Shown: positions 7,775 to 11,528 of the stretch, piece after piece
How the letters are laid out: each line of letters starts with the position of its first letter
How positions within the stretch are numbered: the first letter of the stretch is position 1
Source of the DNA: a virus
Reading direction: 5' to 3' (one strand)
DNA length: 64,000 nt
Virus record (IMG/VR): IMGVR_UViG_3300027816_004420
Location: 1 to 64,000 of that record
The notes under the pieces: generated by a model
What the model was told of the DNA's origin: nothing
Database searches by the model: none
What the model saw: only the letters and a program-made list of their open reading frames with translations
Position numbers and translations under genes: made by a program

Positions 7775-7823
7775 AAAAATTACATTTTGGCTCCGTTTTT
7801 CAATCCTGAATGAAACTTGTTTG

Positions 7824-7830
7824 TATTTAT
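7824..7830 (+). promoter_or_regulatory. TATTTAT upstream motif
   Basis: TATTTAT ending 6 nt before the ATG at 7837 of the modular surface protein. Confidence 0.5.
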
Positions 7831-7836
7831 CTAAGT

Positions 7837-9972
7837 ATGTCAAATCCCGTTATAATTATTGGTCAACAAAGAATTGTAAAAAAAACTGAGAAAATTTCTT
7901 TTTCCAATCCTACTGACTCTGTCATAACAATAAATTATCAGAAGAGTTCGAATTTTCAGTGGGTTTACCAAGACGAAATACTACCTCAACAATCCAAAAG
8001 GATTTGGGCTGTTCCATCATCAATACAAATTCCAAATTACTTTTCTGAGAATTTAGTTAGTCAAGATGACGGAGATATATTAAACATGATACAGACATAT
8101 TCTTTGGGGGATGTTGTGAATGTCAACACCGAATCTTGTTATGTATATGAATACCCATATCCGTTTCCAGTCACTTTAAGAATTTCAAGTGAATATGCCT
8201 TACCACCCAACGTTAATATAGATTATAGAATTGCAACATACAATCCTCCTTACATCGACCCAACAGTGTTCAACGGTATTCCTTGGACAAATTTAGTAAC
8301 GAATTTTCAAGTTGGTGAGTGTCCCAATTATAACTTAGCAGGAACTGTTTATATCTCTTCTCCTTCTTTGGCTATCCAATATAGAGTGAGGGACTTATCT
8401 GACAATAGATTGAATTACTATTACATTATTTACCCTGAAACCTGTTTCGGACCTGGAGAGGACCCTTGTAACATCAATTCAATACCTAGAATTTGGGACT
8501 TATTATTTTCTGGTTGTTCTATAGATGGTATTTCGATTTATTTATTTGAACCATCCCAAATTCCCTTCGCTCAAGATGTTTGGATGGTATTGAAATCTCC
8601 TCCAGGAAACATAACCAACTGCACTACCCCAACTCCAACATCGACCGTTACACAAACACCAACCAACACTCAAACACCAACAAATACTTCTACACAAACT
8701 CCAACGCCAACTAACACTCAAACACCTACCAACACCTCTACCCCGACTCCAACGCCAACTAACACTCAAACACCTACCAACACTCAAACACCTACCAACA
8801 CTCAAACACCTACACAGACCCCTCCTGTTTACTATTATTCAGCTCTTCTATGTGGGGACCCATCTTTCTTGAGATATTTCCGTTCGTCGAATCCAAATTT
8901 AACCGACAGTTGTTCTGTAATTTACGGTTATTGTGATGAGGCACCTCATACTGAATGTGGGGGAGTTCCTCAATGTTTTGATAATGTAAGCCCTTCGGTT
9001 GTCGTGAATTCGAATGATGTTTTAGAATGTTTCGATAGTTGTGAGTGTTGTCAGGGACTTTGTCCAACACCATCCCCAACTCCTACAATAAACCCGACCT
9101 CAACACCAACACCGACCACGACACCATCTCTAACCCCTACATTGACCTCAACTCCTACATTAACTCCTACATCGACCTCGACCTCTACACCAACACCAAC
9201 AACCAGTCCGACAGTCACAGGCACACTTACTCCTACACCAACACAAACGAGACTTGCCGATTGTTATCAAAAAATTTATTTCGATGTAACATTAACTGAA
9301 ACTTTTTTCAGTTACACAGATTGTTGTAGTGGAGAAGTAAATATCCTGAGCGTTGAAGCTGGTGTTGATTCTTGGGGTGCACCCGAGGGTTGTATAGAAT
9401 ATGGTTCAGTAACTGTTATTTCAGGTGAGTTCAATAATTTGTATTATAATTCACCTTGTGCGTGTCCGACACCCACACCAACATTGACAGCCTCTAATAC
9501 TCCAACTCCAACAACTACTAACACACCAACATTGACCGCTTCTAATACTCCAACTCCAACAACTACTAGTACACCAACTAACTCACCAACAACTACCAAC
9601 TCACCTACACCAACGCTTACACAGACTCCGACGGCCTCTGTAACTCAAACTCCTACACCAACACAAACAGAACCAACAGTTACACAGTCTGTAACACCAT
9701 CTCAAACACCTACGCAATCATTTGTATTTTACCCTTATTCAGTTACCTCAGGACAAACTTTTGTATCGATAGATTGTAATCCTGTTGTTTTAACTCAGAC
9801 CTTATATGCCGCAGAATCAAGTTGGTATACAATTACCAAATTTTATTCAGATTCAAACCTAACAACACCATACAATGGTAATGACTTGTATTATACCAAC
9901 AACACTTTAGGTTCCTCCGATTGGTATAGAATCGCAACGAATGGTTCAATAACTGATAGCTACGGTTGTTAA
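7837..9972 (+). CDS. Modular surface protein with Thr/Pro-rich linkers
   Basis: 711 aa, start MSNPVIIIGQQ chosen because TATTTAT lies 6 nt upstream (an in-frame ATG at 7810 precedes the motif). An N-terminal beta-rich domain (1-260) is followed by three Thr/Pro linkers (about 262-330, 410-471, 544-627) separating Cys-containing modules: 331-409 with about ten Cys, 472-543 with several, and a C-terminal domain 628-711. No signal peptide. The beads-on-extended-linkers design suits a virion surface or fibre-associated protein that samples host surfaces or mucus; this is inference. Codon choice in the linkers is very repetitive (ACACCAAC-type), inviting slippage and length change. Confidence 0.7.
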   Translation: MSNPVIIIGQQRIVKKTEKISFSNPTDSVITINYQKSSNFQWVYQDEILPQQSKRIWAVPSSIQIPNYFSENLVSQDDGDILNMIQTYSLGDVVNVNTESCYVYEYPYPFPVTLRISSEYALPPNVNIDYRIATYNPPYIDPTVFNGIPWTNLVTNFQVGECPNYNLAGTVYISSPSLAIQYRVRDLSDNRLNYYYIIYPETCFGPGEDPCNINSIPRIWDLLFSGCSIDGISIYLFEPSQIPFAQDVWMVLKSPPGNITNCTTPTPTSTVTQTPTNTQTPTNTSTQTPTPTNTQTPTNTSTPTPTPTNTQTPTNTQTPTNTQTPTQTPPVYYYSALLCGDPSFLRYFRSSNPNLTDSCSVIYGYCDEAPHTECGGVPQCFDNVSPSVVVNSNDVLECFDSCECCQGLCPTPSPTPTINPTSTPTPTTTPSLTPTLTSTPTLTPTSTSTSTPTPTTSPTVTGTLTPTPTQTRLADCYQKIYFDVTLTETFFSYTDCCSGEVNILSVEAGVDSWGAPEGCIEYGSVTVISGEFNNLYYNSPCACPTPTPTLTASNTPTPTTTNTPTLTASNTPTPTTTSTPTNSPTTTNSPTPTLTQTPTASVTQTPTPTQTEPTVTQSVTPSQTPTQSFVFYPYSVTSGQTFVSIDCNPVVLTQTLYAAESSWYTITKFYSDSNLTTPYNGNDLYYTNNTLGSSDWYRIATNGSITDSYGC
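8620..8826 (+). repeat. Thr/Pro-coding tandem repeat 1
   Basis: Degenerate tandem of short units such as CAAACACCTACCAACACT encoding TPTNTQ-type peptides within the surface protein. Confidence 0.8.
9064..9249 (+). repeat. Thr/Pro-coding tandem repeat 2
   Basis: Second linker of the surface protein, Thr/Pro/Ser-rich (TPTLTSTPTLTPTS-type). Confidence 0.75.
9466..9717 (+). repeat. Thr/Pro-coding tandem repeat 3
   Basis: Third linker. It contains two near-identical copies of a block encoding TASNTPTPTTT separated by about 50 nt, suggesting recent duplication. Confidence 0.75.
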
Positions 9973-10010
9973 AAAAACAAAAAACCCCACCAGTAGAAAC
10001 TGACGGGGTT
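9971..10010 (-). terminator. Rho-independent terminator of the large noncoding RNA
   Basis: On the minus strand an 18-nt-scale hairpin: AACCCC (10005-10010), CAGT, loop TTCT, ACTG, GGGGTT (9983-9988), then TTTTTTGTTTTTTT (9971-9984). The T-run reaches the stop codon of the plus-strand surface protein. The plus strand lacks a T-run after the stem, so the terminator faces the noncoding region. Confidence 0.85.
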
Positions 10011-10976
10011 GGCAAAAAACTCTGAGAATACAAGTTTTGGTGAGAATCTTTGGAAGGATTATGATTTCCCTTCGTTTCCACTTCCTTTTGAGAAGTAATC
10101 CTCAGTCACGGTCAATTAGATTAACCAATCCTTAAGTTGTGTACCACTCTCTCGTTACTCATCACTCTTCGAGGTTGCCACCCCAATTAATCCTTGCGGG
10201 ATTAGAGAACTTTCAAGAAAATCCTGTCGGGCTTGGGACCCTTCAAGGCTAAGAACATCTCTTAACTATGTAGTGACCTGTCGCACACAACTGACGAGCA
10301 CTTTTCCTTGTTTAATTTTGAGTTTGTTAAACCTTAATTAACAAAGTTGGTTTACGGATGATGAAAGTAGCGGCCCGTCTGAAGCCATGCCATCTTTTGG
10401 ACGACACGATACTAAGCTACTCTCTGAAGTCTCCCGACCTCCATATTTTGAGTCAACTTCATAACTAACCTCTTGGTAGAGAGAAAGTTAAGGTTCCATC
10501 AGCACCACCTGTTATGAAACTTACCTTGTTCGGTGTTAAGCCAACTCTAATATTGAATCACGCAATTACTATGGTGGATGCCATAGTTTCTTACATTAAT
10601 CCTTCAGGTTATTCTTATTGGTGTTCCCACCTCAATCAAACGACCCGTATCGCTTGATTACCCAACCACGTTCCCTACAGTGTCACCCTCAGTACTAAAG
10701 GTCAGATAATATCCTGATTGCCTACTCGAGTTCCCTTTCGGAAACCGCAGACCTCCCAAACCAGGGAGTTCCACTTTATACTATTTTCATAGTTTATTTA
10801 ATGACCATAGGCGGCCAATATCTTGAACAGAATGTCTCAGAATAAACCCGAAGGTTTCATCATCAACTAACTGTGAAGATAATATCTTAATTCAAAGAAC
10901 TTTCAAATTTAAAGGGAAGAAGAATCTTGACGACCATCCGAAGTTGGAACACTTACAACTCCTCCCCTTCAATTGT
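9975..10976 (-). ncRNA. Large structured noncoding RNA, about 1 kb (candidate GOLLD/ROOL-like or new class)
   Basis: No frame of useful length exists on either strand for about 1 kb, and base composition is richer in G+C than the genes around it. The region has a perfect promoter (10981-11012) and a strong terminator (9971-10010), both on the minus strand. Read in that sense it forms stable hairpins with classic RNA loops: CCAAC-UUCG-GAUGG (10934-10947), AAACC-UUCG-GGUUU (10844-10857), GUUUCC-GAAA-GGGAAC (10730-10745), plus longer stems at 10634-10659, 10569-10586 and 10322-10346. A polypurine stretch near the 5' end can pair with a polypyrimidine stretch about 60 nt later. Large ornate phage RNAs such as GOLLD and ROOL are of similar size and often lie near tRNA genes, as here. 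I could not match a known consensus by eye; a new class is possible. Confidence 0.75.
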
Positions 10977-10980
10977 TTCA

Positions 10981-11012
10981 CAAAGTTAAGACACGTTTTT
11001 GGAACTGTCAAA
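10981..11012 (-). promoter_or_regulatory. Bacteroidota-type promoter of the large noncoding RNA
   Basis: Minus strand TTTG (11009-11012), exactly 20 nt, TAACTTTG (10981-10988). The predicted start is near 10976. Confidence 0.85.
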
Positions 11013-11118
11013 TCTTTTTGAAACTTTTTTTGACTTTTTCTGATTCGATTCTAATACCCCCCACTCTTAATGGGACAGGTTCAAATTCAGTCTTTGTCAA
11101 AGAACATACGACTCTCAT
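11008..11118 (-). CDS. Possible 36-residue protein
   Basis: A frame of 36 codons (MRVVCSLTKTEFEPVPLRVG..., basic C-terminus) begins 11 nt after the -7 box of the promoter at 11130-11161 and ends at the -33 box of the noncoding-RNA promoter. It could be a small regulator, a leader peptide or chance; the same transcript could instead be a second noncoding RNA (it contains the run GAGTGGGGGG). Confidence 0.3.
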   Translation of the reverse strand: MRVVCSLTKTEFEPVPLRVGGIRIESEKVKKSFKKI

Positions 11119-11129
11119 CGTGTGTTTTA

Positions 11130-11161
11130 CAAAGATAAGAAGGTTTTTTTAAACTCTCAAA
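11130..11161 (-). promoter_or_regulatory. Bacteroidota-type promoter
   Basis: Minus strand TTTG (11158-11161), exactly 20 nt, TATCTTTG (11130-11137). It lies between the tRNA-like element and the noncoding RNA. Confidence 0.8.
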
Positions 11162-11171
11162 TCTTTTTTTT

Positions 11172-11245
11172 GTTGCGTCGCCTTGGAATCGAACCAAGCT
11201 AAGTGGGCTTATGAGACCCATGGAACACCTTGCCCCCCGCCCGCA
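11172..11245 (-). tRNA. tRNA-Met(CAU)-like element, acceptor stem defective
   Basis: Minus strand. A good anticodon arm TGGGT-CTCATAA-GCCCA (anticodon CAU), a 5-nt variable loop and a perfect T arm CTTGG-TTCGATT-CCAAG are present with correct spacing. A weak D arm (GGGG...TTCC) can be drawn. The acceptor does not close normally: the 3' side GCGACGC pairs with the 5' side for only the outer three pairs (five counting flanking TT/AA), then mismatches; no CCA is encoded. It may be a decayed tRNA, a tRNA mimic or part of the neighbouring RNA. Transcribed from the promoter at 11367-11398. Confidence 0.5.
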
Positions 11246-11336
11246 ATATAATGATTAACTCCTACTTACCCCTCGGTCACCTATCCACGTCATGCGCTGG
11301 TTGAACCAGCAGGAGTCATCATTTCAATATTTTTAA
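11243..11336 (-). other. Long imperfect inverted repeat next to the tRNA-like element
   Basis: Nested complementary segments enclose about 60 nt: AATAT/ATATT, ATGAT/ATCAT and ACTCCT/AGGAGT, with an inner hairpin GCTGG-TTCA-ACCAGC. It fits an extended RNA structure at the 5' end of the transcript carrying the tRNA-like element. It does not fold as a canonical tRNA (four-base loop where the T or D loop should be). Confidence 0.5.
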
Positions 11337-11366
11337 GAACTATGTTGTTTTGAAAAAGAAGTCCCA

Positions 11367-11398
11367 CAAATATACGGAGATTTTCTCAAATAACCAAA
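11367..11398 (-). promoter_or_regulatory. Bacteroidota-type promoter inside an inverted repeat
   Basis: Minus strand TTTG (11395-11398), exactly 20 nt, TATATTTG (11367-11374). The whole promoter is bracketed by GTCCCAC (11361-11367) and GTGGGAC (11402-11408), with an inner GAGA-TTT-TCTC (11378-11388), so a dimeric repressor or a cruciform could act on it. It precedes the tRNA-like element. Confidence 0.75.
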
Positions 11399-11429
11399 TT
11401 CGTGGGACTATTATTTCGAGATTACTCTT

Positions 11430-11471
11430 TTATTCATCTCGAGTGTTTGGGGTGTTCGTCCTCTCGGACAT
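11430..11471 (-). other. Possible 13-residue micro-ORF and GNRA hairpin
   Basis: TATTTAT (11478-11484) lies exactly 6 nt before an ATG that opens MSERTNTPNTRDE followed by stop. The start region also folds as GTCC-GAGA-GGAC, a GNRA tetraloop hairpin. The combination may mark a transcript start rather than a peptide. The 11339-11528 stretch has no other gene. Confidence 0.2.
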
Positions 11472-11528
11472 GAACATATAAATATTCCGAAAAGTTCAAA
11501 AAGTAACCCTAAGAAAAAATATTTTTTT

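What the first reader, a model, noticed from the sequence alone, without database searches (positions are those of the whole stretch)
9971..11012. Self-contained gene for an approximately 1-kb structured noncoding RNA
About 1 kb carries no long frame but has a perfect host promoter (TTTG-N20-TAACTTTG), a strong terminator on the same strand and several hairpins with UUCG and GAAA tetraloops that are only favourable in that sense. Established: phages can carry large ornate RNAs such as GOLLD and ROOL, often beside tRNAs. Inferred: this is one of them or an undescribed class. It is the strongest candidate in the window for an unknown system.
Basis: partly seen in the sequence, partly recalled or inferred. 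Interest (0 to 1): 0.85.

Follow-up and report, generated by a model that had tools for sequence, protein, structure and literature searches.

The report
GOLLD giant RNA of Bacteroidota phages
The stretch is a gene for a GOLLD RNA, a known class of giant phage RNA that assembles into hollow RNA cages; what is new is that in this phage group it is read out with ribosomal-RNA-type control signals and sits beside an unrecorded small RNA and initiator-type transfer RNAs, which hints at a role in protein synthesis.

Summary
The minus strand of 9971-11012 has a Bacteroidota promoter, no long reading frame, a strong terminator and a strand-specific fold. Rfam names it GOLLD (RF02032) over the full model, 322 bits, E 1.9e-91, at 10424-10019(-). 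Its 5' half belongs too: 75 non-redundant relatives on viral contigs align across both halves, with compensatory changes throughout (95.3% of pair cells paired against 79.6% shuffled). The Kretsch 2025 intermolecular L20-J13/15 contact appears to be kept in all 75 (44 GC, 28 CG, 3 AU), though the loop naming is my mapping. So it is a new member of a known class, expected to form an RNA nanocage.

A small RNA with its own promoter and boxA lies just upstream at 11124-11040(-); every occurrence found sits directly before GOLLD, and it is not in Rfam. Met(CAT) tRNA genes flank 25/75 copies (0.5 expected), and 15 of the 17 well-formed ones lack the 1:72 pair, an initiator hallmark. The window's copy is a degenerate version. 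Function is unproven; a link to translation is inferred.

The parts
10981..11012 (-). Bacteroidota-type promoter TTTG-N20-TAACTTTG of the GOLLD RNA; start site expected near 10976
   Evidence: kept in 70 of 75 relatives
10892..10900 (-). GTTCTTTGA, rRNA-leader (boxA-like) element in the GOLLD leader
   Evidence: 74 of 75 relatives against 0.9% background; same 9-mer in the 16S leader of a Lentimicrobiaceae genome
9976..10976 (-). GOLLD RNA transcription unit, about 1.0 kb, start and end predicted
10425..10817 (-). GOLLD 5' (cap) domain, not covered by the Rfam model but colinear and covarying in the relatives
10019..10424 (-). GOLLD 3' (ring) domain, full Rfam RF02032 model 1-416, 322 bits
10311..10353 (-). 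A/U-rich variable linker, expected to be disordered inside the cage; no tRNA in it
   Evidence: by comparison with PMC12286853
10306..10307 (-). GG of the linker end (J13/15) that would pair with CC 10236-10235 of L20, the intermolecular B7 contact of Kretsch 2025
   Evidence: covarying pair 75/75: GC 44, CG 28, AU 3
10235..10236 (-). CC of L20, partner of 10306-10307
10273..10277 (-). GUCAC, pseudoknot with GUGAC 10109-10105
   Evidence: all pairs kept in 75/75, changes on both sides
10105..10109 (-). GUGAC, partner of 10277-10273
10643..10648 (-). 5'-domain loop ACGGGU that pairs with AUCCGU 10359-10354 of the 3' domain
   Evidence: three covarying pairs kept in 75/75
9983..10010 (-). intrinsic terminator, 12-pair stem with U run
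11130..11161 (-). promoter of the upstream small RNA
   Evidence: conserved
11040..11124 (-). GOLLD-linked small RNA: leader hairpin, boxA GTTCTTTGA at 11105-11097, conserved hairpin ACCUGUCCCAUUAAGAGUGGGGGGU at 11080-11056; 3' end not defined
   Evidence: not in Rfam
11367..11398 (-). promoter of the farthest upstream unit; boxA-like GTTCTTAAA follows at 11340
11171..11245 (-). degenerate tRNA-Met(CAT)-like element
   Evidence: ARAGORN does not call it
11250..11323 (-). long hairpin with a T-arm-like stem-loop, possibly tRNA-derived
   Evidence: same core in L170 and L226

Best explanation
It is a GOLLD RNA gene of a jumbo phage of a Bacteroidota host. Shown from sequence: a complete GOLLD RNA with 5' and 3' domains, a variable linker, the class's pseudoknots and the covarying contact that matches the published B7 bridge, between a host-type promoter and an intrinsic terminator. 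Inferred: the host RNA polymerase starts at the -33/-7 promoter; the rRNA-type boxA leader loads the Nus antitermination factors so that a 1-kb untranslated transcript is finished and made in large amounts; the RNA folds and self-assembles without protein into a closed cage like the env-38 14-mer, with the linker inside. The most likely purpose, weakly supported, is to act on or hold parts of the translation apparatus late in infection. The link of these copies to initiator-type tRNA genes and small tRNA-like RNAs, the presence of tmRNA in the same phages, and the published pull-down of ribosomes with GOLLD point that way.
For: Rfam full-model match 322 bits, gathering 150. 75 non-redundant relatives align over the whole RNA; 218 pairs, 95.3% of cells paired against 79.6% shuffled and 40-45% slid, 2610 double-change cells against 693. 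B7-type contact 75/75 with CG/GC/AU exchange. Promoter 70/75 and boxA 74/75 against under 1%; boxA-like element in Bacteroidota 16S leaders: GTTCTTTGA in Lentimicrobiaceae, GTTCATTGA in Polaribacter and Maribacter. Cage structure, B7 and linker position: PMC12286853. tRNA-Met flanking; tmRNA.
Against: No transcript data exist here. B7 is matched to the paper by my reading of its stem numbering, without its alignment or coordinates. The window's own tRNA-Met neighbour is degenerate and 50 of 75 relatives show none in reach. In Acinetobacter phages GOLLD sits 9 nt before tRNA-Asp, so Met is not a general rule. An L. brevis GOLLD was reported dispensable for phage production (PMC7567579), and L. 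brevis-type 5' domains may differ. In the 321-kb relatives GOLLD lies about 110 kb from the tRNA array and about 127 kb from the tmRNA.
Confidence: 0.88

Rival explanations
1. It is another or an undescribed large RNA class (ROOL, OLE, a self-splicing intron, or new), with only a chance likeness to GOLLD.
For: The 5' half has no Rfam model of its own, so by Rfam alone only 406 of about 1000 nt are classified.
Against: Full-length GOLLD match far above the gathering score and no match to any other large RNA family; the 5' half covaries, and is paired through a covarying contact with the 3' half, in the same 75 relatives.
Confidence: 0.01
2. It is a decayed or untranscribed GOLLD remnant.
For: The neighbouring tRNA-Met-like element is degenerate and ARAGORN finds no tRNA in the window.
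Against: Promoter, boxA, terminator and all tertiary contacts are intact; 100% identical copies occur in large contigs from several samples; helices are kept by compensatory change.
Confidence: 0.04
3. GOLLD here is a sponge or decoy that works as a monomer, for example by binding ribosomes, and the cage is an in vitro by-product.
For: Pull-down of ribosomes with GOLLD is cited in PMC12286853; rRNA-like transcription control and tRNA neighbours.
Against: A contact shown to be intermolecular in env-38 appears to covary in 75 of 75 copies here, which a monomer function would not require.
Confidence: 0.12
4. The cage stores or protects phage tRNAs or other cargo tethered by the linker, rather than acting on translation initiation.
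For: PMC12286853 proposes encapsulation; tRNAs occur in some GOLLD linkers; tRNA genes lie directly 3' of many GOLLDs.
Against: The linker here is about 43 nt, A/U-rich, with no tRNA; the 3'-adjacent tRNA would be cut off by RNase P.
Confidence: 0.3

Closest known systems
GOLLD RNA, Rfam RF02032 (Weinberg et al. 2009; Kretsch et al. 2025, PMC12286853, env-38 14-mer)
   Same: Full Rfam 3' domain; separate 5' domain; variable linker; phage genome; tRNA-like neighbours; covarying contact that matches B7 (L20-J13/15); conserved CCCGCAAGG loop with a central GC like L21a; GAAA loop in the 5' domain.
   Different: About 1000 nt transcript instead of 833; long leader with rRNA-type boxA; own Bacteroidota promoter with a separate small RNA in front; no tRNA in the linker. 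The env-38 sequence itself was not available for direct comparison.
ROOL RNA
   Same: Large phage RNA, cage-forming, often near tRNAs.
   Different: No Rfam ROOL match; different sequence and stems.
Large untranslated RNA of phage ICP1 (PMC7567579)
   Same: About 1-kb gap without frames, the most abundant phage transcript there, of GOLLD/ROOL size.
   Different: Class not assigned in that paper; ICP1 has no tRNAs. Not compared by sequence here.
Bacteroidota rRNA leader (promoter, then boxA)
   Same: TAnnTTTG-type promoter followed by GTTC[TA]TTGA in three leaders and GTTCATAGA in a fourth.
   Different: Drives GOLLD and small RNAs instead of 16S rRNA.

Membership tests
GOLLD (RF02032) | Covariance-model score above the curated gathering score (150 bits) over the 416-position model | tested here: met
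   322.1 bits, positions 1-416
GOLLD (RF02032) | Conserved 3' region with its hairpins and pseudoknots supported by compensatory change | tested here: met
   helices 22-41 (helix 24 excepted: it was entered one column off, see report) and pseudoknot helix 28 at 100% paired
GOLLD (RF02032) | Additional, more variable 5' region of about 400 nt | tested here: met
   colinear and covarying 10817-10425(-), helices 1-21
GOLLD (RF02032) | L20-J13/15 kissing contact (B7) | tested here: met
   75/75 paired, GC 44, CG 28, AU 3; stem naming by my reading of PMC12286853
GOLLD (RF02032) | Self-complementary loops L21a and L21b joining the half-shells (B8, B9) | tested here: inconclusive
   L21a-like loop CCCGCAAGG keeps its central GC in all eight copies printed; no exchange seen, and the first retrieval pattern required this loop
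GOLLD (RF02032) | Encoded by phages or prophages, often near tRNA genes | tested here: met
   virus record of 149,631 bases, 321-kb relatives; tRNA-Met-like element 11245-11171(-)
GOLLD (RF02032) | Expression rises during phage lysis; forms a multimeric cage | not testable with these tools
   needs RNA-seq and cryo-EM or mass photometry
ROOL, OLE, group I/II introns | Match to the Rfam model of the family | tested here: not met
   no match in the window at gathering scores, nor in 9950-11500 up to E=1

The most novel reading that the evidence does not exclude
In Bacteroidota phages GOLLD is the main part of a multi-RNA module for control of translation: tandem host promoters, each followed by a host rRNA-type boxA, make (1) initiator-type tRNA or tRNA-like RNAs, (2) an undescribed small RNA found only directly in front of GOLLD (23 of 23 distinct window-type loci, and nearly all of a second type), and (3) the GOLLD cage, which acts on initiation complexes or initiator tRNA during infection.
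Probability: 0.25. Interest if true: 0.8.

Novelty: new member of a known kind. Interest (0 to 1): 0.5.

Why it matters
The function of the cage-forming giant RNAs is an open question. This work yields a large family of full-length GOLLDs in Bacteroidota phages with strong covariation, including the apparent intermolecular contact, and three concrete leads to function: rRNA-type transcription control, an always-adjacent small RNA, and initiator-type tRNA neighbours. It also shows that cultured Acinetobacter phages (AM24, P577, Herod, Bestia) carry GOLLD-like sequence that is not annotated as such, in AM24 and P577 between tRNA genes, which would make deletion tests possible.

Tried and rejected
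ROOL, OLE, intron and other Rfam families: no match. Protein-coding origin: no frame, and changes follow stems. Bacterial genomes: the GOLLD pattern hit 34 contigs but none matched the full-length GOLLD profile at E<=1e-6, so they are chance hits for this type. Plasmids: none. Base pairing of the small RNA (ACCUGUC) with GACAGGU of GOLLD: fits 4 of 5 copies but also occurs without the small RNA, and L169 breaks it; not supported. An automatic scan for circularly permuted tRNA genes gave three weak hits and missed the by-eye candidates, so no claim is made. My first regex for the GOLLD motif failed. Helix 24 was entered one column off; the right register is. Relatives by taxonomy cannot be drawn for a virus record. 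No held paper joins GOLLD with initiator tRNA.

Full report
What is there. On the minus strand of 9971-11012 a Bacteroidota promoter (TTTG-N20-TAACTTTG, 11012-10981) is followed by about 1 kb without a long frame and by an intrinsic terminator (stem 10010-9983). The minus strand folds much better than the plus strand (-301.6 against -223.0 kcal/mol). Rfam GOLLD matches 10424-10019(-) over its whole length with 322.1 bits, E 1.9e-91; nothing else in Rfam matches the window at gathering scores. The virus record has one copy.

Relatives. Pattern scans of viral contigs gave about 200 loci with GOLLD of the same type. The window's sequence recurs at 100% identity in contigs of 317-321 kb from other samples, so the record is part of a jumbo phage. 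After removal of copies at least 90% alike, 75 full-length RNAs remain, aligned as A1. Both halves are colinear in all 75. A blastn search with one relative finds a 642-kb uncultured phage covering 80% of the query, several cultured Acinetobacter phages by their 3' part, and a Streptococcus prophage.

Structure. A consensus of 218 pairs keeps 95.3% of cells paired against 79.6% in shuffles and 40-45% when slid; 2610 cells carry changes on both sides against 693. The structure was derived from this same alignment, so the percentage paired leans towards it; the double changes and exchanged pair types are the stronger evidence. Most of the strongest covarying column pairs lie in the structure (83 of the top 100). 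Those outside the nested fold form helices: GUCAC 10277-10273 with GUGAC 10109-10105; the 5'-domain loop 10648-10643 with 10359-10354; GACGGGC 10379-10373 with GCUCGUC 10299-10293 (in one search this last helix, number 24, was entered one column off and should be ignored); and G10306-C10236, which changes GC/CG/AU 44/28/3 with no exception. Kretsch et al. (PMC12286853) report a kissing contact between L20 and the linker J13/15 as intermolecular bridge B7; by position the last pair is that contact. I matched the names from their text, without coordinates or their alignment, so this identification is likely but not certain.

Transcription. The promoter is kept in 70 of 75 and GTTCTT[TA][GA]A in 74 of 75 leaders, against 0.8% and 0.9% of random segments of the same contigs. 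GTTCTTTGA stands in the 16S leader of a Lentimicrobiaceae genome, GTTCATTGA in Polaribacter and Maribacter, GTTCATAGA in Flavobacterium. That this is boxA and recruits Nus factors is inference from the general bacterial boxA consensus (own knowledge); no paper on the Bacteroidota element was found.

Neighbours. Two more promoters lie upstream in tandem. The nearer, 11161-11130(-), precedes a small RNA with a leader hairpin, boxA and the hairpin ACCUGUCCYAUUANGAGURGGRGGU. A scan with a pattern for this hairpin, made without regard to GOLLD, gave 38 stretches; all 23 distinct ones, the window included, lie 48-83 nt before the start of the GOLLD alignment. Aligned (24 sequences), its hairpins show exchanges UA/AU, GC/AU and CG/UA. 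It has no Rfam match. A second, unrelated conserved RNA (CAGTCTAGGTCC...) stands before GOLLD, or in its leader, in 13 of 14 distinct loci; it has no Rfam match either.

tRNA. Met(CAT) tRNA-like genes lie on the same strand within -450 to +120 nt in 25 of 75 loci against 0.5 expected from the rest of the contigs. Among ARAGORN tRNAs within 300 nt 21 of 26 are Met, further away 15 of 145 (Fisher P 5e-13, not corrected for relatedness). Of 17 with a well-formed acceptor stem 15 have no 1:72 pair, a hallmark of bacterial initiator tRNA (own knowledge), but only 3 of the 25 have three G-C pairs in the anticodon stem. The window's element (11245-11171) is a degenerate version, as in L020, L068 and L193. 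Ten relatives found by ARAGORN have tRNA-Met 7-20 nt after GOLLD, and AM24 and P577 have tRNA-Asp 9 nt after it, so RNase P could make the GOLLD 3' end there; in the window a terminator does. tmRNA genes occur in 8 of 75 loci and in the 321-kb relatives of the window's phage.

Verdict. A new member of a known class. The surroundings are new observations that make the function question testable; the step to a function in translation is inference, and the association counts are not corrected for shared descent.

Noticed in passing
window 11124-11040(-); L164, L170, L175, L191, L228 and others: Small RNA with its own promoter and boxA, found only directly upstream of GOLLD (23 of 23 distinct loci); not in Rfam.
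   Followed up: partly
L005 about 9850-9700(-); L004, L070, L136, L179, L300 and others: Second unrelated RNA, about 140 nt, with a nearly invariant 50-nt core (CAGTCTAGGTCCGTAGGGCTACTGTTGTATGTGAGGAAAGTGACTACGGG), next to GOLLD in 13 of 14 distinct loci.
   Followed up: partly
L023 about 7820-7480(-), L210, L008, L051: Elements upstream of GOLLD with the T-arm before the D-arm and a long closing helix, like circularly permuted tRNA genes with a shortened acceptor stem.
   Followed up: partly
L005 6034-6424(+), L012 10288-9868(-), L019, L137, L091, L206; 321-kb contigs of L003 and L022: Phage-encoded tmRNA genes, several with tags ending VAVA or VSVA instead of LAA, some close to GOLLD.
   Followed up: no
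upstream of GOLLD in L020, L055, L077, L158, L219 and many others: Conserved small frame (about 50-60 aa, MSE...YTPN..FA...ANKYGT..VYVEK) directly before GOLLD, absent from the window.
   Followed up: no
L269, L270 (Acinetobacter phages AM24, P577): Unannotated GOLLD-like sequence between tRNA-Asn and tRNA-Asp in cultured phages.
   Followed up: partly
window 11323-11250(-): Long hairpin with a T-arm-like stem-loop beside the tRNA-Met-like element; same core in L170 and L226.
   Followed up: no
window 7810-9972(+): 720-aa protein with long PTPTNTQTPTNT-type threonine/proline repeats, ending at the GOLLD terminator; match to phrog_15511 of unknown function.
   Followed up: no
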